From positions 1-64,000 of the IMG/VR virus record IMGVR_UViG_3300027734_000046: a stretch of DNA of 64,000 nt; one strand, given 5' to 3'. Shown here one piece after another: positions 2,273 to 38,898 of this stretch. The DNA is from a virus. A program made the translations under genes and the position numbers. Below the pieces are notes generated by a model. The model was not told the origin of the DNA, did no database searches, and saw only the letters and a list, made by a program, of their open reading frames with translations. Within the stretch, counting starts at the first letter, position 1. Each line of letters opens with the position of its first letter.

Positions 2273-3706
2273 TTAATTGTTGTTATTTTCTTCGTCTGAG
2301 ACGTTATCTGTATTGTTAAGAACTTTTTTTCTTTCTTGCATTCCGTTTAATAAACCAGCAACATAGTCGGTAGTTTCTTTTTCTTTCCCTTTATTGAATT
2401 CTCCTTGGGTCCTAGCTTTTTTATTAGGGTTCATATCTATTTGAATTCTAGAATTATCAAAGATTATGTCTTCTAATATTATACCATCCTTAGCAAATCT
2501 AGATTTTAAGATGGCCATGGTAGCCGTTCCATTTTCTTTTTGGTCTAGGGTTTTAGCTATTGAAACAACGAAGTGACCTATTTGTCCTTTCTTGATTGAG
2601 CCACCCATTTGGTCAGATTCAACAACTGTTGCTTTGATTGAACTTCTATTGCCCTGAACAGCGGTCCATCCTGCCATATCTAATTCAGATAATAATGTTT
2701 CAAATTGTCTCATTACATTACCTTCGCCAACATTAACATCATCAAATTTCCTAGATGGTTGTACGCAGTCAATATAATCAACTAAAACGATATCTGGTCT
2801 AAAGCCTTGTGCTATCAACTTTCTAATATAGTTTCTAATAATTGGTATTGTTGTTCCATCACTAGGAAATTTTTTAAGCCTTAGTACACCTTTTTCAGAT
2901 TCTTTTTGTTTAACTAGATTCTTTAATTCATCCTTGTGTAATGATAAGCTATTAAGTTCGTAACCTGACCAACAAGCCAAATGCTTTCTTTGAATAACCT
3001 TTGCGGCATCTTCAAAAAATATTTGCAACACATTGTAACCTAAGTTCTTGGCTGTATTTGCTATCTTGGTAATCATTGTAGTTTTACCAACACCAAATGG
3101 TGCTAATATAATCGCAAGTTCACCTTTTGATAACCCACCATCCATGATTTCATCTAAACCCTTTATACCAGTCGGTATTGGCTTTCTGAAGTCATCTAAT
3201 AGTACGGACTCAATATTTTCTAGAACATTTATGCCATTATCTTTAAGGTCACCATGTTCTAATGCTTTTTTTAATAACTCTTCACACTCATCGTATCTAG
3301 CATCATCACCAACTTCAATAATACTGCTAATTTGCTTGATTGATTTTTTTAATTCTTGTGTTTTGCAAAACTTCATTGCTTTTTCTTGAACACCAAGAGT
3401 ATCATTTAGGCTAACGTCTTTTATTCTCTTTAACTCCGCAAGCGCCCATTTTTTATCAATTTCATTAGTTATAACATCTAGTAGTCTGTATTCTAGACTA
3501 CCGATATCTATTATAATGTTATGTTTTGCATAGGCCTCCTTTATTGTTGAAACAATAAGTTTTAGCGCATTACCCTCAAAATAGTTTGCATCAATTATTT
3601 CAATTATTGATTCGGCAAATCTGTTGTCAACAAGAAGTTGTGCGATTAGTCTAAGTTGAAAATCATCCCCTAGATACCCAAAACCTTCTCTATTTATTTT
3701 TGCCAT
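2273..3706 (-). CDS. Replicative DNA helicase, DnaB/T4 gp41-like
   Basis: Hexameric 5'-3' helicase that unwinds the fork ahead of the phage polymerase. The 477-residue length matches T4 gp41 (475). An N-terminal helical domain (about 1-160) precedes a RecA-type motor: Walker A PFGVGKTT at 203-210, Walker B IVLVDY at 306-311, and a downstream QxNR-type segment (VQGNRSS, sensor/H4-like). The N-terminus resembles the DnaB primase-interaction domain in length. It is followed by the reductase and preceded by an unknown gene that ends 44 bases upstream. A late-type ATATTTAT lies in that gap, so helicase and reductase may also be transcribed late. The family call is secure; the exact subfamily is less so. 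No primase gene was seen in this window. Confidence 0.88.
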   Translation of the reverse strand: MAKINREGFGYLGDDFQLRLIAQLLVDNRFAESIIEIIDANYFEGNALKLIVSTIKEAYAKHNIIIDIGSLEYRLLDVITNEIDKKWALAELKRIKDVSLNDTLGVQEKAMKFCKTQELKKSIKQISSIIEVGDDARYDECEELLKKALEHGDLKDNGINVLENIESVLLDDFRKPIPTGIKGLDEIMDGGLSKGELAIILAPFGVGKTTMITKIANTAKNLGYNVLQIFFEDAAKVIQRKHLACWSGYELNSLSLHKDELKNLVKQKESEKGVLRLKKFPSDGTTIPIIRNYIRKLIAQGFRPDIVLVDYIDCVQPSRKFDDVNVGEGNVMRQFETLLSELDMAGWTAVQGNRSSIKATVVESDQMGGSIKKGQIGHFVVSIAKTLDQKENGTATMAILKSRFAKDGIILEDIIFDNSRIQIDMNPNKKARTQGEFNKGKEKETTDYVAGLLNGMQERKKVLNNTDNVSDEENNNN

Positions 3707-3741
3707 TTAATATTAACTTTTTTTGAAAACTTGTGATTTTT

Positions 3742-3749
3742 ATAAATAT
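3742..3749 (-). promoter_or_regulatory. Putative late promoter element upstream of the helicase gene
   Basis: Sense-strand ATATTTAT, 36 bases before the helicase ATG in the 44-base gap after the preceding gene. It is the only such element inside the replication operon, so chance occurrence is possible. Confidence 0.35.
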
Positions 3750-3750
3750 A

Positions 3751-4230
3751 TTAAAGTTGCACATCGGCATACTTTGTTGTGTATTTTTTTTGACTTAACG
3801 TGTCCTTGATATCAGATATGATGTTGGGTATTAATTCTTTAATATCTACTTGATACCTTACTTGTGGCGGAAAATTATTTCCAGAAAACGTGCTCTGTGC
3901 AATAGGGTTTTTGTCCACTCTAATCTCAAAATCAAAAATATCTTCTTTTTCAAAAATGTTTTTATATGGTTCTTCTTTTGAGGGCGCATATGGATTGTAA
4001 AATTTGTATAGATACTCACGCGATTTCTTTTTTAAATGGTTAGGAATCATACCCATAGCACCAAAATCGTCATTGCTCATACCTACGATTCTGTCCATCA
4101 ACTCTTTTAAATCTAATGATTTTGTTGAATTTTCATTATAGTCTCTGATACTAAAATATCTTTGACAAATAATGTGCTTGTTGATGTACAACAAGAATTC
4201 AAATCTCTGTTCTTCAATTTTTTTGTTCAT
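3751..4230 (-). CDS. Hypothetical protein between RNase H and helicase genes
   Basis: Not recognised. The chosen start gives 159 residues (MNKKIEEQRFEF...). An upstream in-frame ATG at 4270-4272 would add 14 residues but overlaps the RNase H gene by 29 bases and begins in its terminal codons, so the internal ATG is preferred. The protein is mixed alpha/beta with many charged residues. It has a central IPNHLKKKSREYLYKFYNPY segment and no transmembrane segment or nucleotide-binding motif. Its place between RNase H and the replicative helicase suggests a replication accessory role, for example as helicase loader. That is inference from position only: no similarity to T4 gp59 was recognised by eye. 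Confidence 0.6.
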   Translation of the reverse strand: MNKKIEEQRFEFLLYINKHIICQRYFSIRDYNENSTKSLDLKELMDRIVGMSNDDFGAMGMIPNHLKKKSREYLYKFYNPYAPSKEEPYKNIFEKEDIFDFEIRVDKNPIAQSTFSGNNFPPQVRYQVDIKELIPNIISDIKDTLSQKKYTTKYADVQL

Positions 4231-4243
4231 AATGTTTGTTTTT

Positions 4244-5293
4244 TTAATTTGTTTGTTTAATCTCTCGTTCAATTAATTGTTTAAATGGTATTAAATAGTC
4301 AGCATATCTATAAGAACCTATTGTTTTTTCTAACCCATCAACCTTCATTTGTTTTAAGACATTTTTAAGACCCCTATCATCCATATTAAACTCACCATCA
4401 ATTAGTTCGTTTAATTGTTCAATAGCCTCATTGGTTATTAACGGGTTATTTAAATCAACCAAAGCAGTATTTATTTCGTAAAGTTTATCACCCTGTACAC
4501 CATCAGTAATGCCATTGATAATATTATCTAACGATTTTAATGGTTTTTGTTTGGAATTTAATCTTTCTTCCTGTAAAGATTTTGCTGATTCGATTAAGAA
4601 ATCTAATGTAACTTTCTTGGTTTTGATATCGGGAAATAAAGCTATTAGCGTTGCTTCTTTTACACCCTTCACACCTTTGATAGTATCGCTATTATCACCA
4701 GTAATAATCTTTATTAGTGCAGAATTTTCGTGGTAATGATTAAAATGGTTTGAGTAGTTGTTGGTATCAACGTATGTTTTTAAATCACAAAAATATATTC
4801 TAACCCTTTCAGATATCAACTGACACATATCTCTATCAGTGGTACAGATAGTTATGAATTCATTTTCACCCCTATTTAAACAATAATAACCGATAAAATC
4901 ATCACTCTCAACAAATTCATGTTGTGTTTGTCTAATACAAAGTTCTTCCAAATAATCCCGTATCATATTTTTCTGTTTGATTTCGGATTCATCGGGTTCA
5001 GTACCTTCGATATAATTTTTACCACGACCACTTTTATATGGTTCGTATATGTTATACCTTAGTTTACCACTAAACTTGCCATCCCAAAAAACATAAACTC
5101 TATGATATAGATTTTCACCTAATAGCTTACGCAATATAGTTAAAAACTGATATAACCCACCTATGTGTTCTCCACGATGGTTATATTCACTCTTGGCTCC
5201 GTGAAAACCAAATTTAAATAAGGCATTCCCGTCAACCAAGAGTGTATTTATAACTTTAATTCGTTCACCATTTTTTGGTGGTCTTTTGTTCAA
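4244..5293 (-). CDS. rnh: 5'-3' exonuclease / RNase H, T4 rnh-like FEN family
   Basis: Removes RNA primers and 5' flaps from lagging-strand fragments. The 349-residue protein follows the T4 RNase H / FEN plan. LLVDGNALF (D21) and VFWDGKFSGKLR (D71) provide the first metal ligands and arch residues. ESDD (around 129-132) and TTDRD (151-155) give the second acidic cluster. ITGDNSDTIKGVKGVKEATL (197-216) is the H3TH region with D200 and D203. A PYKSGR segment (85-90) matches the conserved YKxxR block. It lies 30 bases after the recombinase gene and is translated ahead of the small unknown gene. Start choice is the first ATG in the frame. Confidence in family membership is high. Confidence 0.88.
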   Translation of the reverse strand: MNKRPPKNGERIKVINTLLVDGNALFKFGFHGAKSEYNHRGEHIGGLYQFLTILRKLLGENLYHRVYVFWDGKFSGKLRYNIYEPYKSGRGKNYIEGTEPDESEIKQKNMIRDYLEELCIRQTQHEFVESDDFIGYYCLNRGENEFITICTTDRDMCQLISERVRIYFCDLKTYVDTNNYSNHFNHYHENSALIKIITGDNSDTIKGVKGVKEATLIALFPDIKTKKVTLDFLIESAKSLQEERLNSKQKPLKSLDNIINGITDGVQGDKLYEINTALVDLNNPLITNEAIEQLNELIDGEFNMDDRGLKNVLKQMKVDGLEKTIGSYRYADYLIPFKQLIEREIKQTN

Positions 5294-23952: not shown

Positions 23953-26556
23953 CTAATCGTTTTTACCTTTAAGTGCTTTATTTGCCGCTTCATTAACTTT
24001 AAGTGATAACTGTCTAAGAAACAATGGGTCGCTCATTAAATCCTTTCCAACTTCTCTAGATTCTTGAGTTGATTCACCATTTATTCTTACGTCAATTACT
24101 CCACCTATCTTCATATCATCAACCCTTACACTAGCAGACGCGTTTGAATTAGCCGAGCCAGGCGACCCACCATACATTGACATTATTGACCTTGCAAGAT
24201 TATTATTACCGTTAGCATTTGTACCAGCTATCATCGTTGAGTCATTCAACTTCATAAATTTATCTTTAGCATTAAAACTAACAAGACCATCATCTAATTG
24301 AGCAGTTGCGGCACCAGATACAACATCATCTGGATACTTATCTGGATTTGCCTTGATATCAGCAATTAAATCTTTATTAGATGGTATAATATCTTTTACT
24401 TCGGGGTGTAATTTTCTATAAACAGCCCTACCTAATGCAACATCGTCTGTCCCCATACCTTTGATACCCAAACCAAAACCTTGTGTATCTAAACCAAAAG
24501 CTTTAGGTAGTATTTCAAGTATCCCAACACCAGTACCACCCAAAGCTTCCAACCAACCAGCACCGCCTGTACTTCTTGCACTTTTTGACGAAAAAAAGTC
24601 AACTTGGTCTTTTACTGTTTTAGCTACAGAAACTACAGCTGCCGCAGTAGCAGCAGCGGCTCCAGCACCACCAGACCCAGCAGCTGCAGTACCAGTAGTA
24701 GTCGCACCTCTAGCAGCAGTACTCGCCGCAGCATTACCACCCATACCAAATAAACCTGAACCCATCATTCCCATTCTAAAACCTACAGCTAAAGACGCAC
24801 CATTAGCAATCCACATAGCAGCTTTACCAGCTAATGCAATAGCAAAAGATTTAATTGGGTTTTCAGTAACGTATTCAATAAATTCACTAATTTTACCACC
24901 AACCCAATCAAGAATAACCCCAATTTTATCAAATATTTTTTCTTTTTCAAACCATGCGGTGAATTTACTAATTGCTGCTCTAAGTTTATCACCAACACCA
25001 CCTTTTTTACCAAAAGTGTCTGCTAATTTTTCTGCAAACGGCATTAAAAATATTTTAAATTGTTCAATTAACCCATTAATTTGTTGGTCAAAACTCATAG
25101 CATCCTTAGCTCTTTTTTCAAGACCAGCTTTTTCTGCCATTTGTGCTCGAATAACCTCTTTTGCTGAACTACCTAATTGACTAAGTAATTTTTCGTTTCC
25201 GTCAATTTCAATATACGCTTGCCCCTTATCATTAAATTGTGATATATTTTCCAGAAATTCTTTTTCATCATCTTTTAACCCTGTAACATCCATTTGGGTT
25301 CTAATTTTTTTAAACTTAGCCATATTTTTACCTGCCGTTACCAATGTTTCCAACTCAACACCAGTTGCTTCAGACACCTCTCTAAGCCTTGCCATCTCAA
25401 CAGCCGCCAATTGTATATTACCATCTTTGTCTATCCTTGCATTTTGAGATGCAGCATCAGCAACGGCTTTTGTTAAACCCTCCATATCATTACGAGCCAT
25501 ATACATCAACTTAAAAGGGTCAGCCAATTGAGACCATTTACCACCTAAAACTTGAAGTTTAGCTGACATTTCAACTGCACCCTCAATATTCATCAACTTA
25601 TCAGCCATACCAGCTACAGAATTCATATTTATACCTAACTTGGTAACTGTTTCTGCCATTTTTTTAAACCCTTGAACCCCACCTTTAAAGTTATACCTAT
25701 TAAGCATTTTCATATTAGATGTGATATTCTTAATAACCTTAGATGAATTTAACCCCATTTTACTCGCATCTTCCATGGTGTTATTCATAAACGTTGCAAC
25801 CTTTTCAACGGACATACCCTGAGCCTCAAATTCAGCGGCCATTTTAGCAGCTTCATCAGCCCCCATACCAGTTCCTTTAGCAATGGCGGTAATATTAACT
25901 AAATTTTTAGCACCCAATAGCACCGACCTTCCAATTTCTTCACTATATGCTGATTGCATCTTTGTGGTCTCTTCAAGTGTACCACCCATTTCGGTAATTT
26001 GACCTGAAGCAACCCTTATACTACTACGAAAAGAATCACTTCTTTTTTTCAATAACCCCATACTTAAAGCCGAACTCCTAACCGCTTTATCCATATCAAA
26101 AAGTCCATAACCCTTAATCTTGTTGTAAACATCTACTATAGCACCAGGCAACTTACCCAACGCCTTAGAAGTTTCATTAACAAGCATTTTAGTCTTACTA
26201 ACTGCTTTAAGGTTTGCTTCGTATAGTTGTTTTTGTGCTTTTAATTTGTCAATTTCTTCGTCTAAAGCTTTTTGTAATTTTTCGGTTTCGGCCGCGTTTT
26301 TTCCAACAGCTAACGCTTTTTGTTTTTGTAAAAAAAGGATATCTTTTTCGAGCTCTTTAGTTTTTTTAGCATATGTTACGTATTGTTTAGCGTCACCAAG
26401 TATGGTTTTTTGTATATCCATACTTTCTCTGGTATTTTGAAGATATTCGTATTGCGACGAATTTAAACCCGTTGATAGTTGATTTGCTTTTTCTAAAAGT
26501 TTTATTCTCTTAATTAACTCTTCATTAGTTAATTTTGATAATTCATAATCATTCAT
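23953..26556 (-). CDS. Tail tape measure protein
   Basis: Sets tail length and occupies the tube lumen. The 867-residue protein has a long helical, coiled-coil N-terminus (about 1-130, ELEKDILFLQKQKALAVGKN), a central helical region with MSAKLQVLGGKWSQLADPF, and a hydrophobic Ala/Gly-rich stretch (about 565-640) typical of tape measure proteins. The C-terminal part is Ser/Asn-rich. It follows the gp26-like gene and the frameshifted chaperone-like domain, the order used by most tailed phages. It has its own late-type element 28 bases upstream, after a terminator. T4's equivalent is gp29; sequence similarity to it was not established by eye. Confidence 0.82.
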   Translation of the reverse strand: MNDYELSKLTNEELIKRIKLLEKANQLSTGLNSSQYEYLQNTRESMDIQKTILGDAKQYVTYAKKTKELEKDILFLQKQKALAVGKNAAETEKLQKALDEEIDKLKAQKQLYEANLKAVSKTKMLVNETSKALGKLPGAIVDVYNKIKGYGLFDMDKAVRSSALSMGLLKKRSDSFRSSIRVASGQITEMGGTLEETTKMQSAYSEEIGRSVLLGAKNLVNITAIAKGTGMGADEAAKMAAEFEAQGMSVEKVATFMNNTMEDASKMGLNSSKVIKNITSNMKMLNRYNFKGGVQGFKKMAETVTKLGINMNSVAGMADKLMNIEGAVEMSAKLQVLGGKWSQLADPFKLMYMARNDMEGLTKAVADAASQNARIDKDGNIQLAAVEMARLREVSEATGVELETLVTAGKNMAKFKKIRTQMDVTGLKDDEKEFLENISQFNDKGQAYIEIDGNEKLLSQLGSSAKEVIRAQMAEKAGLEKRAKDAMSFDQQINGLIEQFKIFLMPFAEKLADTFGKKGGVGDKLRAAISKFTAWFEKEKIFDKIGVILDWVGGKISEFIEYVTENPIKSFAIALAGKAAMWIANGASLAVGFRMGMMGSGLFGMGGNAAASTAARGATTTGTAAAGSGGAGAAAATAAAVVSVAKTVKDQVDFFSSKSARSTGGAGWLEALGGTGVGILEILPKAFGLDTQGFGLGIKGMGTDDVALGRAVYRKLHPEVKDIIPSNKDLIADIKANPDKYPDDVVSGAATAQLDDGLVSFNAKDKFMKLNDSTMIAGTNANGNNNLARSIMSMYGGSPGSANSNASASVRVDDMKIGGVIDVRINGESTQESREVGKDLMSDPLFLRQLSLKVNEAANKALKGKND

Positions 26557-26603: not shown

Positions 26604-26625
26604 AAAACCCTATAAATAGGGTTTT
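26604..26625 (-). terminator. Terminator overlapping the end of the frameshift ORF
   Basis: A 9-bp stem (AAAACCCTA with TAGGGTTTT) with a short AT loop, followed by a T run on the minus strand. It overlaps the last codons of the chaperone-like ORF, whose stop is at 26624-26626. Confidence 0.82.
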
Positions 26626-26896
26626 ATGATAAGGGAACTTCCCCAGATTTTATTTTATTTTTTAATGCTTCACCACTCACCTTTGTTTTTCTACTACCCT
26701 TAGCGTTTGGATTTCCCCTATTTGTTATCTCTTCAGCCTTAGCTTGTTCTTCTTGTTTTGACTTAATAAGCATTCCCATGTAGTATCTTCTTTCATTTGT
26801 TGGCATATTTAAAACGTCATTATAACCTATTTTTAAATATTGCATACAAACAAATATCTCTTCCCATAAAGATGGTTTATATTGGTAAGTCAGGCC
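26624..26896 (-). CDS. Tail chaperone-like C-terminal domain, probably made by frameshift from the gp26-like gene
   Basis: About 90 residues in the +1 frame relative to the upstream gene. The convincing part is YKPSLWEEIFVCMQYLKIGYNDVLNMPTNERRYYMGML: an acidic helix, then a MP-x-x-ER-x-Y-Y block seen in small chaperone-like ORFs just before tape measure genes of T4-like phages. This domain begins before the first sensible ATG (26843-26845), which would drop its first helix. The frame further upstream, back to 26980, only mirrors the gp26-like coding sequence. The natural way to translate the whole domain is a shift at the T7 run where the upstream gene ends. An independent start at 26845, giving 73 residues, is the alternative. 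Confidence 0.6.
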   Translation of the reverse strand, partial: GLTYQYKPSLWEEIFVCMQYLKIGYNDVLNMPTNERRYYMGMLIKSKQEEQAKAEEITNRGNPNAKGSRKTKVSGEALKNKIKSGEVPLS

Positions 26897-28115
26897 AAAA
26901 AAATCTGACGTTAAGGGGAAGAAAGGTAGAAATAGACTCACCTCTAGGAGTCTTAACTTCGATTGATAGGTCAACCCCACAATCTATTTTTTCAATGTAA
27001 TCTTTTAATTCTTTAGAATCACGAACCCTCATTTTTTCGATAAAATCTTTAATAAAGCCTTTATCTCTATTACCATTTATATCTACAATTTGTCTCTCTA
27101 ATCTATATGTAATTACACTATTTACAGGTATTTCATTTTTTTCATCCTCAGCAACCAACTTTTCAATTTGGTTTAAATCACCTACTGTCAACAATTTAAA
27201 TTTAATATTTGCCTTTGCTATTGGTAAATAAAAATCAAAATAACCTTCAGCATCTGGCTCTTTCGATAATTTAATAGTTTTTAGGCTATTTAAATCAACT
27301 TCGCTTTCAAATGGTGCACCATCTTCATCATACATTGTAATCGGGTACATTTCACCATAACTTGTTGCTCTTAACCATAACATGATAGCATTTCTATCAC
27401 CAACATGTAAATCATTATATCTTAGGTCTGGTTCCAATAATTTTCTATTAATTAGAATTTCCAAAAATTCACCACTCTGTAATAGATTCGGAGACGTTAG
27501 GATATTCTCATCTGCCGTTGTCATATAGGCAACCTTAACACTTGATTTTTTATTTTTATATAGTTTACCCTCAGAAGGTAAAGGAATAACGTCAAAAGCT
27601 GCGTTATATTGTGGTTGGCTTAATTGTTGAATATACATATCACTGTTATTCATAATTAAATTAGATGGTCCCATATTAGTTATTGGTTGTTTAGATTCTG
27701 ATTTCAAAGGAACTTTTTGTGGTTCTTGATACTGCGGCTGTTGTTGTTGATATTGCTGCTGCTGATACTGCTGCTGATATTGTTCTTGTTGTACCTGTTG
27801 CTTTTGTGGTTGTTGTGGTTGTTGTTGATACGGTTGCTGTGTCCTTTCAGACGCCGTATTAAAACTATTTTGATATTGTTGAGTATTCTCAACATTTCTT
27901 TTCAATTGTTCATCTCTTAATCTAATTTGTTCTTCAGTCCTTTGACGCATAACTTCGACCGCTGACATGTTAGTTTCGTTCATCGAGTTGGTATATATTT
28001 CGTTTGCGGCTTCGATTCTCTTTGCTTCGTAATCCGAATCAACATTAACTGGTTGTTGAGGTGTGTTTTGGCTTTGTGGTGTGTTTGTTGGAAACACATT
28101 TGGTTTTTTGTCCAT
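26877..28115 (-). CDS. T4 gp26/gp51-like baseplate protein (T4_baseplate family)
   Basis: The 412-residue protein has an N-terminal helical part and a Gln/Pro/Tyr-rich linker (about 78-133, many QQ and QY pairs). The conserved domain starts near residue 170: VIPLPSEGKLYKNKKSSV, then TADENILTSPNLLQ and HVGDRNAIMLWLRATSYG. These are the landmarks of the family that includes T4 gp26 and gp51, baseplate hub assembly factors. It ends FFWPDLPI. The FFWP ending recalls the usual C-terminus of the family, so the unshifted product is probably functional. Near its last codons a T7 run allows entry to a second frame encoding a chaperone-like domain. A late-type element lies 21 bases upstream. Confidence 0.72.
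   Translation of the reverse strand: MDKKPNVFPTNTPQSQNTPQQPVNVDSDYEAKRIEAANEIYTNSMNETNMSAVEVMRQRTEEQIRLRDEQLKRNVENTQQYQNSFNTASERTQQPYQQQPQQPQKQQVQQEQYQQQYQQQQYQQQQPQYQEPQKVPLKSESKQPITNMGPSNLIMNNSDMYIQQLSQPQYNAAFDVIPLPSEGKLYKNKKSSVKVAYMTTADENILTSPNLLQSGEFLEILINRKLLEPDLRYNDLHVGDRNAIMLWLRATSYGEMYPITMYDEDGAPFESEVDLNSLKTIKLSKEPDAEGYFDFYLPIAKANIKFKLLTVGDLNQIEKLVAEDEKNEIPVNSVITYRLERQIVDINGNRDKGFIKDFIEKMRVRDSKELKDYIEKIDCGVDLSIEVKTPRGESISTFLPLNVRFFWPDLPI
26897..26903 (-). other. Candidate programmed ribosomal frameshift site (T7 run)
   Basis: The minus strand reads AGA TTT TTT TGG in the gp26-like frame. A +1 slip of the Phe tRNA on the T run, or a -2 slip, continues as TTT TTT GGC into the chaperone-like frame. 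The gp26-like stop codon is 18 bases downstream of the run. Confidence 0.5.
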
Positions 28116-28364: not shown

Positions 28365-28853
28365 TTAGAATAATAAGATTGCTCTGTCAAATCTAAGTGT
28401 TGCGGTGATTTGAGCGATACCATCATCATCCATTGCTAAGTCACCAAAGCCAACGTTTGTAAGCATAGTACCATCTAATAACCATTTTTCTACAACAACA
28501 CCCGTCGGGTCAAGCATTTCAAGTTCAACAGGTCTTTTGTAACCAGCTGCGTAACCTTGACGACCAGTAATAGATTCAGAGTGTAAACGAACCCACTCCA
28601 TTATAGCTTGAGTAGCTGAAGGACCAATAGGGTCTCTAAAAGTAACATCAATAGTTTCCCATGTAAATCTACCAATAACCCAAGTAGAAGTATTCAAGAA
28701 TGGAATCTCAACTTCATTTTGTGTGATTGAAGGTCTAGAAGCAGTTTCTAACCACCATTGCTGAATACCCAAATCAGCTGGGAAAGTGATAAGCCAACGA
28801 TTCTTTTTCTTCGGTTCGTAAGGCAAGGGCATCTTCATGAGTAAATCGGCCAT
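28365..28853 (-). CDS. Tail tube protein, T4 gp19-like
   Basis: Polymerises into the inner tube through which DNA passes. The 162-residue length matches T4 gp19 (163). The pattern fits the gp19 family: an N-terminal KKNRWLITFPADLGI strand, a central IPFLNTSTWVIGRFTWETIDVTFRDPI, and then W-hxxx-S-G and Y-a-x-x-YKRxVELEMLDPTG segments with a beta-rich end. The start is the first ATG, 33 bases after a late-type element. It is a single-gene unit between that element and the terminator at 28316-28342, which suits a protein needed in many copies. Confidence 0.85.
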   Translation of the reverse strand: MADLLMKMPLPYEPKKKNRWLITFPADLGIQQWWLETASRPSITQNEVEIPFLNTSTWVIGRFTWETIDVTFRDPIGPSATQAIMEWVRLHSESITGRQGYAAGYKRPVELEMLDPTGVVVEKWLLDGTMLTNVGFGDLAMDDDGIAQITATLRFDRAILLF

Positions 28854-32345: not shown

Positions 32346-33869
32346 TTATTCTATATTTAGTTCAAATTTCATATTACCACAATCCCATATTCTATCATAA
32401 CCCTTAATTTTCATTATTTCAAATTCAGATAGTTTGTTATCAAAACCTTCTTTAACTAATACATCCTTTCTAAAATTAAACCTATGATACCTATTGTTAT
32501 ATTCACCTATTTTAACATACCAATAATTTGGTGGTGTATTTTCAATAAATGTAAACCCATTTTTATAATAAACAGTATTTTTATAATCTAAACCTGACCA
32601 CCTAATGTCGGCATATGTTATTACTTTATTTGGTTTGTAATTATCAATAAAATATTTTAATAGTCTTGAAAACCCACCAACAACCCTGTGATTTTTTTTA
32701 TTAACAAACCTCATTAATTCGTATTGATTTTCTTTATCACACCTACCCATTATTTTTCTTAATTTACCAAATGTAATCAGACTAACTAATTCGTTATCAT
32801 AAAATAATCCAAGTCTTATTTTATCGATTGAAGAATCTTGAATATGGTTTTTATTTAAAAATTCATCGGACACTTTCTTATCAACGCTCATTATTGAACA
32901 TTTTCTAGCATATATTTTTTTATTATTTATCATTAAAAAATTTGATAACCTAGAAAGTACTATATCTTTCTTATATAAAATTTCATCTTCAAATATATGA
33001 ACTAATTTTATGTTTGATTCGTGCGCTAGCTTAGATTTATTAATATGGTAATTTCTATCCTTTTCACCATTTATCTCACTATGGTAAAAATTACCATTAA
33101 CCTCGATTCCTAAATTATAGTCATGTAATAACAAATCTATTTCCTGCCCGCTTAATAGTTTTCTAGAATTATCTAAATGGTCAATATTATTTTCGTTTAA
33201 AAAATCACGTATAAATGCTTCTAATTTAGAATTTTTAACCAAAGGAAAACATTTTCTACATATTGGTATTTTACCAGAACCCAAAACTGTACTTGTAAAC
33301 ACGTTATTGCATTTTAAACATTTAAAATTATACGGCATAGATGTTGTCCCACTTTTATTTGCTGTATACTCATCTAATAACAATAAATTATTATCCTCTA
33401 ATTTTGGTAATAAATTATTTATTTGTTTTTCTTTTAACGTATTCTTTAATTTGGTAACCAACCCTTCATGTTTCATTGGATTATCAACTCCGTACTTATC
33501 CACCAAAATTTTCTTTAACCCATTTTTAAACTCATTTTTTTTAAAAATGGAATCAACTCCGTGTTTTTCAAAAAAACTTTTTTTACTAGCTAATATTCTT
33601 TTATCTTTATTCTCCTTAATTTTTCCCCACTTTATCCTACATTCACCAGAACATAACTTTTTTTTATTGTTTATCTTAACTTCAAAATCATTGTTACACA
33701 TATCGCATTTTCTAACCTCCCTAATACTTTCATCTTTTTTTCTACCTATCGTTTTGTTTTTGTTGGCAAATTCAAAATAGCAACTTCTTGAACAATACTT
33801 CTTATCCCTATGTTTATATTCGGCAATAAAATTATTATCACAATTAATACATTTTAATTCTATGTTCAT
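32346..33869 (-). CDS. Homing endonuclease with VSR-like (EDxHD) nuclease and zinc-finger domains
   Basis: The 507-residue protein is a probable selfish free-standing nuclease. Three four-cysteine zinc sites are visible: C7/C10/C26/C30, C55/C58/C73/C77 and C184/C187/C204/C207. Two repeats, KHGVDSIFKKNEF and KYGVDNPMKHEG (about 102-136), look like NUMOD-type DNA-binding helices. The nuclease core at about 215-300 has QEIDLLL followed by GIEVNGNFYHSE, the pattern of very-short-patch-repair-like phage homing enzymes. A C-terminal domain (about 315-500) contains GGFSRLLKYF and TYADIRWSG. The gene lies between the sheath gene and a small structural-region gene, and has its own host-type promoter and strong terminator. 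It is therefore expressed separately from the late genes. Confidence 0.82.
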   Translation of the reverse strand: MNIELKCINCDNNFIAEYKHRDKKYCSRSCYFEFANKNKTIGRKKDESIREVRKCDMCNNDFEVKINNKKKLCSGECRIKWGKIKENKDKRILASKKSFFEKHGVDSIFKKNEFKNGLKKILVDKYGVDNPMKHEGLVTKLKNTLKEKQINNLLPKLEDNNLLLLDEYTANKSGTTSMPYNFKCLKCNNVFTSTVLGSGKIPICRKCFPLVKNSKLEAFIRDFLNENNIDHLDNSRKLLSGQEIDLLLHDYNLGIEVNGNFYHSEINGEKDRNYHINKSKLAHESNIKLVHIFEDEILYKKDIVLSRLSNFLMINNKKIYARKCSIMSVDKKVSDEFLNKNHIQDSSIDKIRLGLFYDNELVSLITFGKLRKIMGRCDKENQYELMRFVNKKNHRVVGGFSRLLKYFIDNYKPNKVITYADIRWSGLDYKNTVYYKNGFTFIENTPPNYWYVKIGEYNNRYHRFNFRKDVLVKEGFDNKLSEFEIMKIKGYDRIWDCGNMKFELNIE

Positions 33870-33987: not shown

Positions 33988-36900
33988 TTAAATGTTATCA
34001 AATGAAGCCCCTGTATTCATAATATTAAATTCTACAATTATAAATTCTAGAGCTCTTGTTGGTTTAAGGTAAATCTTACCAGTTAATTGATTTCTATCGA
34101 TATCTTCTGGGTCGTTACTTAAAACAACTCTGAAATCTACTAAACCTCTTTCGGTTCTAATGCTATCCAATATTGGATTAACAAGTGACAAGAATTGATT
34201 TCTTACGATAGTATCATTTTGTTCGAACAACAATCTAATAGCCACAGCAGAGATAAGTTTTCTAGCTTGTAAAAGAAGTCTTCTAACATTGATTCTGTCA
34301 AGAGCACTTTCTTTAACTTGTAGTGTTTTATTACCCCAAATCTTAATACCATCAGATGTAAATGTTGCGATTGGGTTGATTCTATTTTCGTAAAGAACAT
34401 CTCTTTCACTTAAAGTTAACTTCTTACGAGCTTTAAGAGCGTCAACGTCACCTCTTTGAATACCTGCTACTGCGAACCAAGGGAATGCTATGTTATCAGT
34501 CAAAGCGATGTTTCTCACAACGTCTCTTGTTGGTGGAACGTAAACATACACATTGTTCTCAGCATCAAGGATTTGAATCCAAGGCCAGTATGTTGCTGTG
34601 TAGCTACTATCATACATATCTGATAATTGGTCTGTTACGTCACCAACTGTTAATACTGTTCCTGCAGAATCGGTATCAGGCGTTGTTACAACATATAAAG
34701 AGTCAGCTCTGTCTTGCTCAATCATTTCGATACTAGCTTCAACAAGATTTGTGTTATCAAACGTATCAATACCAGGCGTAGCAAACACATTAACATTTAC
34801 AGCCTCTGGGTTTTTAAATGTCCAGATACCCTCTAAGTAAGCGTAGTAATCAGATGTAATACCTAAATCACCGTTAGTTAGAGTTTTGTTTGCAAACGTA
34901 CCTACTGCTAAACCAGCAGCACCCTTGGTACCATTGATAGTAAAGCTATCTAAGTTAGTTCTTCTTGTTCTGTAAGGGTCGAAACCGTCGAATCCGCCAT
35001 AAGGTGCAAAAGTAAATTTACGAGCGTACACTTTCTCATATGGGCCGTTAGCTAAACCAGCGTCAGTTCTAAACTGCCAGTCACCAGTATCAAATAAGAA
35101 TATTGGACTATATGTGTTACCTGAGTTATCAATAACAACTTTAACATTGTCAATTGTAGCACCTGTAGCGTCGATATCCATGTGGAAACCTTTGGTTAAA
35201 CCAGTCCACATATCATAATCTTGTCCAACAGGTATACCTTTGTAATCAAAGAAATCAGCGTCTATACCTATTGTATTAGATAAACCTAAATAGTATTTAC
35301 GTTTGTTTTCAAAAGCGCCATATTTTTGCTTATACATTATGCTTGGTGTTTGAACATCAGGGTTAGAGTTAATTTCATAATCTCTAACTGGGAATCCAAC
35401 AAAACCAGCTGGGAATGCATCACTTGTATCAGAACTTTCATCAAGTTCAAGTAAAATGTGAGCAGATTTTGATGCATATACACCATCTAATGTACCGATT
35501 CTTCTAGCAACAAAGTTGTTTGAAGTTGGGTCCATTGTACAACGTGTGTAAGCTTCGATGATATTAGGTGCCGCATCTGTATCATAAAAACCTCTTACCA
35601 ATACATCAAACTCTCTTGTATCTGGTTTAATGTTAGCAATTGAAATTTTATATTGTTCGTTTGCTGCGTTACCGTCAGATATTGTCCAAATTCTAAATAA
35701 TCTTAACAATTTATTACCTCTTAATTCTGATACAACATAAGGTGTAACAGCTGGTTGGTATTCTTGTAAGTAGTCAGAGTATTGACCAGCGTAGTCGATA
35801 ATATCTAAATTGATACCTCTAACTTTACCATCATTAACATACTCAACAAACATTTTATCAAAGAATTCTTCAACGTATACTGCAGTTTCACCATCTAAAG
35901 CAGTTCTACCAAGAACTTTTGTTATGTAATTTCTTTGTGTTCTATCGAAAGAGCAATCATAAGAGAATGCACCCTGTGTATTTGATGTACCAATTAAAGC
36001 GAATGAACCGTAAGGGTTTTGTTCTGCTGTGGTAATGCTTGAATTAAAATTCAATCCTGTTGTTGCACTAACTTGGAATACTGGTAATTGAGTTTGAGCA
36101 TTAACTTTACCTCTAGAACGAAGCAAAGTAATTAATTTATCCTCAACATCTGCGTATCCTTTACCAACAGTATATGTTGTAAAACCAGATGTTGTACCTG
36201 TTTTATACATTGATATTGAAGTACCTGAGTAATAGTTTACAACTGCTGATGTTGTACCAGTATTATAAAACAAACCAGTACCTGAATATACACCTGTAAA
36301 ACCAGATGTTGTACCTGTTCTATAAACTGTTAATGGGTCACCAGAGAAGTAGAATACATTACCAATAGTTGTACCTGTTTTATAGTTAATACCAGAACCA
36401 GAATAGAATGTTGTAACACCTGAGGCTTGGCCTGATATGTATGCTGCTGTTTGAGCGCCACTATACTGTATTGTAAATCCAGATGTTGTACCTGAGATAA
36501 GTCTAGTGTTTGAAGCACCAGTATAATATTGAATATACCCACTTGTCAAACCAGTATAAATATTTGGTGTTGATGTTGAACCTGTACTTAAAATAATTGC
36601 AACACCATAAACACCAACATAAGTTGTTGCATTTATTGCGGTATAAGAACTAGGAACACCTTGTACACTATATAGTAATCCAACACCAGTTCCAGGTGAA
36701 TTTTTTAAACCAAAATAATTACCTTGCAATATTCCAGCGGTTTCCATTGTATTATATGGTTCACTAGTTGTTAAATAAGTAACATTTACAGTGCTAGATG
36801 TTGTAGCGGCAGTAAATCGTATAAATGAACTAATAAGTGGTGTTGCTCCGCTAAAACCTACCGAACTTTGATTTAAACTTTGTGGTGTTACACCAGAAGT

Positions 36901-38898
36901 TGCTGCAGAGAATACCGCAGAAGCACCAACATAAGATGAACCGCTTTGTACAAAACTAAGAGGTACACTAAACGATGTACCAACTGGTGCACCACTAAAC
37001 AATGTGGCTAAACTAAAGTTATTAGCAACATACATTGCATTAAGAACATTGTTATTAATAACATAACTTGTGCTGTTTGTTATTGGGTTTGTTTGATAAG
37101 TAATTAACGGATTAGCATTTATAGGGGTGGCAACACCACCTGTAGCACCAGTAGTTGTTGTATTAATTGCTGCTGGAACAGTTACTTTACTTACAATAAT
37201 ATAACTTGAAGAAGCACCAGTATAAACCGCACCAGAACCTGTCATAACAAAAGGAATTACACCTCTAACACCAGAATTTAACCCAGGTAATGAAGCTAAA
37301 CTAAATAAAGAAGCGCCATAAAATGCACTTGTTAATGGGTCTGAAATTACAGTATTTGTTAATGAACCACTAGTTGTTGCTGTATATCTAATTAATGGGT
37401 TATAGTTTGCTGTTGTTGAAACACCAGTACTAGATGCATTGAAATAGTATGGTGTAATACCTGTTTGTGATACAGTATATGTTGAACTAGCACCAGTAAA
37501 AATTGAACCGTTATAAATAAATGATAAAGGTATTGTACTAGTTGTACCAGTTGCTGTTGCGGGTAATCCGCTAAGACTAATATTACCAGCTTGGTATAAA
37601 CTATTAGTTAATGGGTCTGCAATAGTTGCGGTAATTAATGTATTACCAGTTGTTGCTGTATAATTTATAAATGGTACAAAACTACCACTAGTTGTAGCCG
37701 CAGTTGTTGTTGTATTAATACCACTTTGCGTTAAGCCAGTGGCAATTACAACGTAGTTAGATTCATTACCAGTAAAACTAGTACCTACGTTTACATAGTT
37801 TCTAGCTATTGAACCAGTCGCACCAACTGCCAAGCTAGATAACCCAGTTAAACTAAAATTTGAGTTATTATAACCAGCATTTGTATTTGGCTCGTTGATT
37901 TGAACAGCAGAAAGAACACCACCAGTTGTTGATGTATAAACAATAAATGGATTTGTATTTGCGCTACTAATTAAAGCAACACTAGCAGCACTTAAAGTCA
38001 TTGTTGTTGTACCAGCAGAAATAAGTGTATAAACTGCACCAGCACCACTATAATTTGAACCACCAACATTTATAAATGAATTAGAAATAACATCAGATTG
38101 ACTTATTGTTAGACTAGGCAATGTACTAAGACTAAAATTACCGTTGTTATAAAGGCTTGATAATAGAGTATCATTTATAGTTACTGTTACCAAATTATTT
38201 GAGGCGTCTGCTGTAAATGATGCAAATGGGAGGATACTTACATTTGTTAGTGTTGCACCTGTAGTTGTTGGGTCTAACACATTTGGTGTTGAACCAGCGT
38301 TAACAACCAACAATTGACTGCTAGCACCTGTAAATAAACCACCAACTTTTTCTAGCGAAACACTCAACGATAATATTTGACCATTTGTTAATGTTGGTAA
38401 CAAAGCTAAACTAACACTACCATTGTTAACTAAATAACTTAATAATGGGTCACTAATAGTTGTACCTATTAATACGTTAGAGTTTGTTGCAGTATATACA
38501 ATACTAGGATTATACGAGCTTGTTGTTGCTGTTATTGTTGAATTATCCAAAGCAGCATCCATCGTTATACCCCAAGCTTTACCTGCATCATAACCAGAAA
38601 AACCAAGAATTCTTGTTACAAATAATTGGTTTGATTGTGATAGATATGATTTTGCGATATATGGTAATTCATACAAAGGTGCGCCGTTTCCGTCTGGACC
38701 GTTTACCAATGTATTATTTAAACCACCGAAAAACGATTGAAACTCGCCGTAGTTACTTACGAAAATAGGTTGAAATGCTGGTCCTTTGGTTGTTTCACCC
38801 ACCAAACCCAATGTCGTAACACCTACTTGACGTGTTACAAATGTTAAGTCTTTTTCTGAGGTGTAGACACCTGGACTAACGAATACTTTTTCTGCCAT
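33988..38898 (-). CDS. Tail sheath protein, T4 gp18-like, with giant repeat insertion
   Basis: Contractile sheath subunit. The N-terminus (VFVSPGVYTSEKDLTF, then GLVGETTKGPAFQP and FGG) and the C-terminal 700 residues carry typical sheath features. The C-terminal part includes RNIALTDNIAFPWFAVAGIQRG and a long final domain with RRLLLQARKLISAVAI and VDFRVVLSND. The total of 1636 residues compares with 659 for T4 gp18. The excess is an insertion at about residues 120-912. It contains six or seven degenerate repeats of about 90 residues (NPxIxYTATT, SDPLxxxxY, FSLxxLP, Y-x-G-A-S-S), then about eight short repeats of GTTSGFTxxYSG type. It is Ser/Thr/Gly-rich, beta-like and presumably on the outer tail surface. 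It has its own late element and terminator. Confidence 0.88.
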   Translation of the reverse strand: MAEKVFVSPGVYTSEKDLTFVTRQVGVTTLGLVGETTKGPAFQPIFVSNYGEFQSFFGGLNNTLVNGPDGNGAPLYELPYIAKSYLSQSNQLFVTRILGFSGYDAGKAWGITMDAALDNSTITATTSSYNPSIVYTATNSNVLIGTTISDPLLSYLVNNGSVSLALLPTLTNGQILSLSVSLEKVGGLFTGASSQLLVVNAGSTPNVLDPTTTGATLTNVSILPFASFTADASNNLVTVTINDTLLSSLYNNGNFSLSTLPSLTISQSDVISNSFINVGGSNYSGAGAVYTLISAGTTTMTLSAASVALISSANTNPFIVYTSTTGGVLSAVQINEPNTNAGYNNSNFSLTGLSSLAVGATGSIARNYVNVGTSFTGNESNYVVIATGLTQSGINTTTTAATTSGSFVPFINYTATTGNTLITATIADPLTNSLYQAGNISLSGLPATATGTTSTIPLSFIYNGSIFTGASSTYTVSQTGITPYYFNASSTGVSTTANYNPLIRYTATTSGSLTNTVISDPLTSAFYGASLFSLASLPGLNSGVRGVIPFVMTGSGAVYTGASSSYIIVSKVTVPAAINTTTTGATGGVATPINANPLITYQTNPITNSTSYVINNNVLNAMYVANNFSLATLFSGAPVGTSFSVPLSFVQSGSSYVGASAVFSAATSGVTPQSLNQSSVGFSGATPLISSFIRFTAATTSSTVNVTYLTTSEPYNTMETAGILQGNYFGLKNSPGTGVGLLYSVQGVPSSYTAINATTYVGVYGVAIILSTGSTSTPNIYTGLTSGYIQYYTGASNTRLISGTTSGFTIQYSGAQTAAYISGQASGVTTFYSGSGINYKTGTTIGNVFYFSGDPLTVYRTGTTSGFTGVYSGTGLFYNTGTTSAVVNYYSGTSISMYKTGTTSGFTTYTVGKGYADVEDKLITLLRSRGKVNAQTQLPVFQVSATTGLNFNSSITTAEQNPYGSFALIGTSNTQGAFSYDCSFDRTQRNYITKVLGRTALDGETAVYVEEFFDKMFVEYVNDGKVRGINLDIIDYAGQYSDYLQEYQPAVTPYVVSELRGNKLLRLFRIWTISDGNAANEQYKISIANIKPDTREFDVLVRGFYDTDAAPNIIEAYTRCTMDPTSNNFVARRIGTLDGVYASKSAHILLELDESSDTSDAFPAGFVGFPVRDYEINSNPDVQTPSIMYKQKYGAFENKRKYYLGLSNTIGIDADFFDYKGIPVGQDYDMWTGLTKGFHMDIDATGATIDNVKVVIDNSGNTYSPIFLFDTGDWQFRTDAGLANGPYEKVYARKFTFAPYGGFDGFDPYRTRRTNLDSFTINGTKGAAGLAVGTFANKTLTNGDLGITSDYYAYLEGIWTFKNPEAVNVNVFATPGIDTFDNTNLVEASIEMIEQDRADSLYVVTTPDTDSAGTVLTVGDVTDQLSDMYDSSYTATYWPWIQILDAENNVYVYVPPTRDVVRNIALTDNIAFPWFAVAGIQRGDVDALKARKKLTLSERDVLYENRINPIATFTSDGIKIWGNKTLQVKESALDRINVRRLLLQARKLISAVAIRLLFEQNDTIVRNQFLSLVNPILDSIRTERGLVDFRVVLSNDPEDIDRNQLTGKIYLKPTRALEFIIVEFNIMNTGASFDNI
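36160..38540. repeat. Tandem degenerate coding repeats within the sheath gene
   Basis: About 270-base repeat units occupy roughly 36570-38540 and about 55-base units roughly 36160-36570. Both lie inside the sheath coding frame and keep it open. Copies have diverged but retain the same landmark codons. Confidence 0.8.

What the first reader, a model, noticed from the sequence alone, without database searches (positions are those of the whole stretch)
26624..28115. Programmed frameshift linking the gp26-like gene to a tail-chaperone-like domain
The gp26-like frame ends AGA TTT TTT TGG ... with stop at 26877-26879. A T7 run (26897-26903) lets a ribosome move +1 (or -2) into a second frame that reads on for about 90 residues and encodes a coherent helix plus a MP-x-x-ER-x-YY block. 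The first helix of that domain precedes any reasonable ATG, so a plain internal start would truncate it. The order (short product, frameshift extension, tape measure gene) is the classic tail-chaperone arrangement, as in lambda G/GT. Here, however, the upstream partner is a T4 gp26-family baseplate protein. If real, one locus makes both a baseplate factor and a chaperone fusion of about 496 residues.
Basis: partly seen in the sequence, partly recalled or inferred. Interest (0 to 1): 0.72.

Follow-up and report, generated by a model that had tools for sequence, protein, structure and literature searches.

The report
Frameshifted tail-assembly chaperone gene
A phage gene seems to change reading frame near its end to make a short and a long version of one tail-building helper protein; the trick is known, but this phage group shifts forward where its relatives shift backward.

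Summary
On the minus strand the 412-aa gp26-like frame (28115..26877) carries AGA TTT TTT TGG CCT near its end; a +1 (= -2) frame change there gives a 496-aa fusion. Among 125 unique junctions of relatives, 112 keep a 7-T run in that register and 121 have the +1 frame open well past the stop. The other 4 lost the run, carry a -1 heptamer (A_AAT_TTC) and have the extension in the -1 frame. The base before the run is T in 1 of 119 +1 junctions (50.8 expected) but in 61 of 61 slippery junctions of cyanophage/KVP40-type relatives, which use -1. This favours ribosomal slippage.

"Baseplate factor plus chaperone" needs revising. T4 gp26 and gp51 are both PF12322, and the -1 relatives' extension matches both the T4 gp51 C-terminus and the window-type extension. 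So the locus most likely makes the short (gp26-like) and long (gp51-like) forms of one tail-assembly chaperone. That T4-like phages encode such chaperones is published (Vladimirov 2022; only title and citing passages seen). I did not see the +1 lineage, the one-base rule or the hairpins of some members in the papers searched.

The parts
26877..28115 (-). gp26-like ORF, 412 aa: short form (TAC-N type); C-terminal ~235 residues are the conserved domain, the N-terminal ~165 residues are an extension rich in Q
   Evidence: PF12322 E 6.7e-8, phrog_150 baseplate hub E 2.2e-11; AlphaFold2 pLDDT 94.2 for residues 164-412
26897..26903 (-). slip site: TTTTTTT read as AGA TTT TTT TGG
   Evidence: sequence; 7-T run in register in 112 of 125 unique junctions of relatives
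26627..26896 (-). +1-frame extension, 90 codons after the shift: T domain, gp51-like; stop at 26626..26624
   Evidence: conserved FFGL..Y...IF...MP..R block; codon-position pattern; window-type extension homologous to that of -1 relatives, E 3.4e-10, which matches the T4 gp51 C-terminus, E 9.6e-12
26877..26879 (-). 0-frame stop (TAA) that ends the short form
   Evidence: sequence
23953..26556 (-). 867-aa ORF after the extension, tape-measure position
   Evidence: position only: no significant family match in Pfam or PHROGs; 88 of 90 +1 relatives with enough DNA have a long ORF here
28365..28853 (-). tail tube protein gene upstream
   Evidence: phrog_4542 tail tube E 4.9e-26

Best explanation
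The locus encodes one tail-assembly chaperone in two lengths. Most ribosomes read the gp26-like frame to its stop and make the short form; a minority slip one base forward on UUU UUU U(GG) and make a 496-aa fusion that ends in a gp51-like domain. By analogy with lambda G/GT the short form coats the tape measure protein and the rarer long form brings in tail tube subunits. Shown by sequence: conservation of the slip run, its register, both frames and the gene order, and the homology of the parts. Inferred: that the fusion is made at all, that the ribosome (not RNA polymerase) makes the shift, its efficiency, and the role in assembly.
For: 7-T run in register in 112 of 125, +1 frame open in 121 of 125. 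TTT TTT 112 seen, about 70 expected of 123. Extension evolves as +1-frame protein: differences 25/14/61% by codon position over 260 related pairs, not independent. 4 of 4 relatives without the +1 frame have A_AAT_TTC and a -1 extension; 0 of 119 +1 junctions have it. Base before the run is T in 1 of 119 (50.8 expected; 1 of 76 against 34.3 after thinning) but in 61 of 61 slippery -1 junctions; elsewhere in the same genes 237 of 968. A long ORF follows in 88 of 90. T4 gp26 and gp51 are one family; extension links to gp51 through the -1 relatives.
Against: No expression data. Start-like GTG/TTG codons upstream in 65 of 119. In LR756511, outside the counts, the -1 extension begins at an ATG overlapping the stop with no T run there, so that relative may start it independently; PhiW-14 and the KVP40-type VH1 have both a T_TTT_TTC and such an ATG. 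Hairpins just upstream of the run in a minority of relatives are unexplained on the ribosome. First Phe codon is TTT in 116 of 119 (94.4 expected), more than a single P-site slip needs. Five of 25 SP-15-type junctions lack an obvious slip run. The direct profile match of the window-type extension to gp51 is weak, E 0.0035-0.0039.
Confidence: 0.75

Rival explanations
1. RNA polymerase slips on the T run and drops one U; part of the mRNA then reads straight through into the extension. In some members an upstream hairpin helps, as in Roseiflexus IS630.
For: Strong hairpin ending 0-3 nt before the run in 14 of 78 representatives (4.0 expected from synonymous shuffles), 4-8 nt in 11 (2.7), control distance 9-13 nt in 1 (2.4). 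Best cases L288 and L302 have 9-bp stems next to the run. Precedent with one base lost and a 5'-adjacent stem-loop (PMC5009743 passages). First TTT kept more than a +1 P-site slip needs.
Against: Most members, and the window, have no such hairpin. T before the run is almost absent (1 of 119), though a longer run should slip more. TTTCTTT and TTCTTTT junctions keep the +1 frame. The 4 exceptions use a ribosomal -1 heptamer.
Confidence: 0.17
2. A -2 ribosomal shift rather than +1: same frame, one more residue (FFFGL).
For: On a pure 7-T run both directions re-pair; -2 is recalled for phage Mu (no call).
Against: TTT CTT TGG and TTC TTT TGG junctions (7 of 119) re-pair well only in +1; SP-15-type TTTTTTC and TTCTTTC (20 of 25) also fit +1, UUU to UUC.
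Confidence: 0.03
3. The extension is a separate small gene with its own start and no fusion is made.
For: GTG/TTG/ATG upstream of the shift in 65 of 119; annotated as a separate small ORF in several records; LR756511 has an ATG overlapping the stop.
Against: Conserved FFGL block starts at the run; no ATG at or before 10 codons after the shift in 93 of 119; the T run is kept beyond codon usage; T4 gp51 has the two parts in one frame.
Confidence: 0.04

Closest known systems
T4 gp26 and gp51 (short and long tail-assembly chaperones; Vladimirov 2022, title and citing passages only)
   Same: Same family PF12322; gp51 is a gp26-like domain plus the C-terminal extension
   Different: T4 uses two genes; 7 of 7 T4-type genomes show no T_TTT_TTC at the end of gene 26
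Cyanophage / KVP40-type gp26 and short gp51 ORF
   Same: One locus, short product then frameshift extension before a long ORF
   Different: -1 frame on T_TTT_TTC (58) or T_TTT_TTT (3) in 64 unique junctions; poly-T -1 signals in T4-like genes are credited to Vladimirov 2022 by PMC12846349
Phage lambda G/GT
   Same: Works alike: short and frameshifted long chaperone before the tape measure gene (PMC5009743 passages)
   Different: Lambda shifts -1; no sequence comparison with lambda was made
Halovirus HSTV-2 tail chaperone
   Same: Named in the 2016 review as very likely +1
   Different: Not compared by sequence
Roseiflexus IS630 stem-loop transcriptional slippage
   Same: Hairpin just 5' of a slip run, one base lost; resembles the hairpin-bearing members
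   Different: The window has no such hairpin and the base-before-run rule favours ribosomes

Membership tests
PF12322 T4_baseplate (gp26/gp51 family) | Profile match above the curated cut-off | tested here: met
   32.9 bits against 24.5
Short/long tail-assembly chaperone locus (G/GT, TAC-N/TAC-NC) | Lies between tail tube and tape measure genes | tested here: met
   Tube upstream by phrog_4542; downstream long ORF by position only
Short/long tail-assembly chaperone locus (G/GT, TAC-N/TAC-NC) | Extension in another frame, joined at a conserved slip site | tested here: met
   121 of 125 +1 open, 4 of 125 in -1 with a -1 heptamer
Short/long tail-assembly chaperone locus (G/GT, TAC-N/TAC-NC) | Fold of a known tail-assembly chaperone | tested here: inconclusive
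   No PDB match at E 0.001 or better; HK97 chaperone 2ob9_B at E 1.8, probability 0.41
Short/long tail-assembly chaperone locus (G/GT, TAC-N/TAC-NC) | Minor long product, binding to tape measure, absence from virions | not testable with these tools
   Needs proteomics and binding assays
Ribosomal +1 frameshift site | Slip codon that re-pairs one base forward, direction +1 | tested here: met
   TTT TTT T in 112 of 125; interrupted runs also re-pair +1; shift itself not measured
Stem-loop-mediated transcriptional slippage | Stable hairpin directly 5' of the slip run | tested here: not met
   None in the window; strong, 0-3 nt away, in 14 of 78 representatives of the lineage

The most novel reading that the evidence does not exclude
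In part of this lineage the chaperone ratio is set by RNA polymerase: an intragenic terminator-like hairpin plus U-tract makes polymerase drop one U, so one gene yields two mRNAs and two chaperones. This would be transcriptional slippage in a tail-chaperone gene, exchangeable in evolution with ribosomal +1 and -1 shifting at the same spot.
Probability: 0.17. Interest if true: 0.8.

Novelty: new variant of a known kind. Interest (0 to 1): 0.55.

Why it matters
It shows one chaperone module of T4-like phages made by three routes at one spot: two genes (T4), a -1 shift (cyanophage/KVP40 type) and a +1 shift (this lineage; 594 of the first 600 pattern matches in viral contigs encode relatives, though only part of the junctions were examined). 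One base before the T run tracks the direction. It accounts for the cyanophage gp51 that lacks its first ~200 residues (noted in Sullivan 2010; Vladimirov 2022 may already say so). It also tells annotators to join ORFs that records now call a baseplate hub subunit and a hypothetical protein.

Tried and rejected
Independent start for the extension: judged unlikely for most loci, with the GTG/TTG caveat and the LR756511 counterexample. Chance open frame: rejected. 'Baseplate factor plus chaperone': replaced by one chaperone in two lengths. A direct profile link from the window-type extension to T4 gp51 was weak (E 0.0039, score 19.8 against 18.2 for the best of 30 shuffles; E 0.0035, 19.4 against 15.0 for the best of 50), so I rely on the bridge through the -1 relatives. 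phrog_634 (gp51 'catalyst') hits the extension only weakly (E 0.26; 0.022) and that search also rang in 2 of 14 control genomes. The fusion's structure could not be predicted; only the unshifted domain was. A link between interrupted T runs and strong hairpins (Fisher p 0.03, hand-entered counts, few lineages) is not used. I first took the T4 gp26/gp51 reinterpretation for new; Vladimirov 2022 (not held) shows it is not.

Calls that gave nothing: 9, 21, 40, 41, 47, 108, 111 (bad terms or frame), 55, 109, 110 (papers not held); scripts 16 and 70 failed and were rerun. Alignment A8 (and A7, built the same way) put extension fragments in the wrong place (seen for A8) and was dropped.

Full report
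What is there. The window is part of a 120,190-base virus record. All features lie on the minus strand: tail tube gene (28853..28365), gp26-like ORF (28115..26877), a second frame ending at 26624, then an 867-aa ORF (26556..23953) with no significant family match that sits where a tape measure gene should. The gp26-like protein matches PF12322 (E 6.7e-8) and phrog_150 (E 2.2e-11). Its end reads AAC GTC AGA TTT TTT TGG CCT GAC TTA CCA ATA TAA. One step forward at the T run continues FFGLTYQYKPSLWEEIF... for 90 codons after the shift, giving 496 residues.

Relatives. tblastn in annotated phages found 10 records, among them Flavobacterium phages immuto, Microcystis phage Mel-JY01, Bacillus phage SP-15, Listeria phage LIS04 and Streptococcus phage vB_SagM-GXN1. 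SP-15 has sheath, tube, gp26-like, small ORF, tape measure; LIS04 the same without an annotated small ORF; immuto the same with a 'tail completion protein' at the tube position; Mel-JY01 the same with a long unnamed ORF last; GXN1 is sparsely annotated.

Conservation of the junction. Of 174 ids examined, 163 gave a gp26-like ORF with my motif search and 11 did not; after removing 5 at contig edges and duplicates, 125 unique junctions remained. A 7-T run in register occurs in 112; the others are TTTCTTT (4), TTCTTTT (4), TTCTTCT (3) and two outside the motif (L003; L324, which has eight T). The +1 frame runs at least 120 nt past the stop in 121. Of these, 119 carry the motif; their first Phe codon is TTT in 116 (94.4 expected), the second TTT in 115 and CTT in 4. 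The following Pro codon is CCT in 118 of 123, against 481 of 1429 elsewhere, partly because the +1 frame needs Leu there.

The second frame is coding. It aligns as FFGL..Y...LH..IF.L.Y..GGF...Y.MP..LR.FY across relatives. Differences between related pairs fall 25/14/61% on +1-frame codon positions (260 ungapped pairs, not independent). SP-15-type relatives form a second set: 25 unique junctions, all with the +1 frame open at least 100 nt, with TTTTTTC (13), TTCTTTC (7) and five less obviously slippery sequences. Their extension is homologous to the window type (E 3.4e-13). A long ORF follows the extension in 88 of 90 +1 loci with enough DNA; length is the only criterion.

A natural switch. In L256, L273, L281 and L296 the T run is broken, the +1 frame closes within 30 nt and the extension lies in the -1 frame. 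All four have A_AAT_TTC just there; none of the 119 +1 junctions does. Further away, a cyanophage (S-RIM8), Melnitz-1, KVP40-type VH1, PhiW-14, ZPAH1 and Atu_ph07 end gp26 with a T_TTT_TT[C/T] heptamer and have the extension in -1. In 107 loci, 64 unique junctions: 58 T_TTT_TTC, 3 T_TTT_TTT, 3 without (L219, L234, L243); -1 frame open at least 100 nt in 62. L219 looks like a broken or mis-sequenced copy. LR756511, not in these counts, has no T run at its end and its -1 extension starts at an ATG overlapping the stop; PhiW-14 and VH1 also have such an ATG besides the heptamer.

Direction rule. In the +1 set the base before the run is T in 1 of 119 where codon usage predicts 50.8 (1 of 76 against 34.3 after thinning at 80% identity). 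In the -1 set it is T in 61 of 61. In the SP-15 set it is T in 1 of 25, counted by eye. Elsewhere in the same 119 genes T precedes TTT in 237 of 968, against 298.8 expected, so mild avoidance is general. A T there would make the canonical -1 heptamer, so I read this as selection acting through ribosomes. Phylogeny was handled only by thinning.

Link to T4. T4 gp26 (208 aa) and gp51 (249 aa) are both PF12322 (E 8.8e-64 and 3.9e-52), gp51 being longer at its C-terminus. The -1 relatives' extension (62 sequences) matches the C-termini of seven gp51 proteins (hhalign E 9.6e-12, 55 columns, score 57.9 against 15.5 for the best of 50 column shuffles) and the window-type extension (E 3.4e-10, 51.7 against 18.3). 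Window-type against gp51 directly is weak (E 0.0035), and comparisons with gp26 C-termini are negative (E 0.19, 0.25). These are pairwise E-values. So gp51 looks like a gp26-like domain plus the extension in one frame, the counterpart of the frameshift product. In 7 of 7 T4-type genomes the end of gene 26 has no T_TTT_TTC. T4 has 26 and 51 divergent; KP15 and EC-F2 have 51 and 26 in tandem.

What was known. The 2016 recoding review says G-T frameshifting is widely conserved in long-tailed phages except T4 and names HSTV-2 as very likely +1 (PMC5009743, passages). Leiman 2010 lists gp26 and gp51 as hub assembly chaperones, calls gp51 essential with unknown function and absent from the particle, but also says genetic studies support gp26 in the hub (PMC3004832, passages). 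Sullivan 2010 notes that cyanophage gp51 is about 20% of the usual length and lacks the first ~200 residues; 'frameshift' does not occur in its main text (PMC3037559). Vladimirov, Gautam and Davidson 2022 identified the T4-like chaperone genes. I saw only the title and how others cite it: PRFect says some T4-like phages carry a short copy and a long fusion copy (PMC10885494, passages), and the Adele paper credits it with poly-T -1 signals in T4-like genes (PMC12846349, passages). One record already names gp26 and gp51 tape measure protein assembly chaperones. I saw no report of a +1 shift in this family in searches; these cover open-licence papers only, and most hits were seen as listings.

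Hairpins. A strong hairpin 0-3 nt before the run occurs in 14 of 78 representatives (4.0 expected from synonymous shuffles), 4-8 nt in 11 (2.7), and at the control distance of 9-13 nt in 1 (2.4). L288 and L302 look like intrinsic terminators. Most members lack it and the window has none. This is the main evidence for the transcriptional-slippage rival and I cannot explain it on the ribosome.

Structure. AlphaFold2 of the unshifted domain (window residues 164-412 with 39 relatives) is confident (pLDDT 94.2). In the viral library it matches the SP-15 baseplate hub subunit (E 5.4e-19) and other T4-like hub proteins. No PDB match reaches E 0.001; HK97 tail assembly chaperone 2ob9_B (E 1.8, probability 0.41, TM 0.49 on the target) is the best-looking weak one, a lead only.

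Verdict. A conserved recoding site, not yet shown by experiment. It works like lambda G/GT and belongs to the gp26/gp51 family. The forward direction in this lineage and the one-base rule are, as far as I could search, new details of a known kind of system. The checking pass changed wording and added counter-cases; the odds stand.

Noticed in passing
L129 (KP15) 3501-4795; L136 (EC-F2) 3501-4794: Genes 51 and 26 lie in tandem on one strand in these two phages, unlike the divergent pair of T4.
   Followed up: no
window 26889..26909: GTCAG and CTGAC flank the T run (GTCAG-ATTTTTTTGGC-CTGAC), so the run could sit in a hairpin loop; L010 and L012 keep it and L011 has it shorter. Possibly chance.
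   Followed up: no
L256, L273, L281, L296: Four relatives that appear to have switched from the +1 to the -1 frame with a new -1 heptamer.
   Followed up: partly
L288 and L302 just upstream of the T run: Nine-bp hairpin next to a 7-T run inside a coding region, looking like an intrinsic terminator.
   Followed up: partly
window 33988..38898 (-): 1636-aa tail sheath: sheath matches cover only about residues 1350-1634, the long part before is repetitive.
   Followed up: no
window 32346..33869 (-); L003 3832-5565: A 507-aa ORF inside the tail gene cluster and a similar-looking 577-aa ORF upstream of gp26 in LR756508; they look like homing-endonuclease-type genes by eye.
   Followed up: no
window 28115 to about 27626 (-): The window lineage has an N-terminal extension of about 165 residues, rich in Q, on the gp26-like protein; most relatives aligned lack it or have a shorter one.
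   Followed up: no
L135 (LR756511) near 4235: gp26-like protein with a longer basic tail and the extension starting at an ATG overlapping the stop: perhaps an unshifted arrangement.
   Followed up: no
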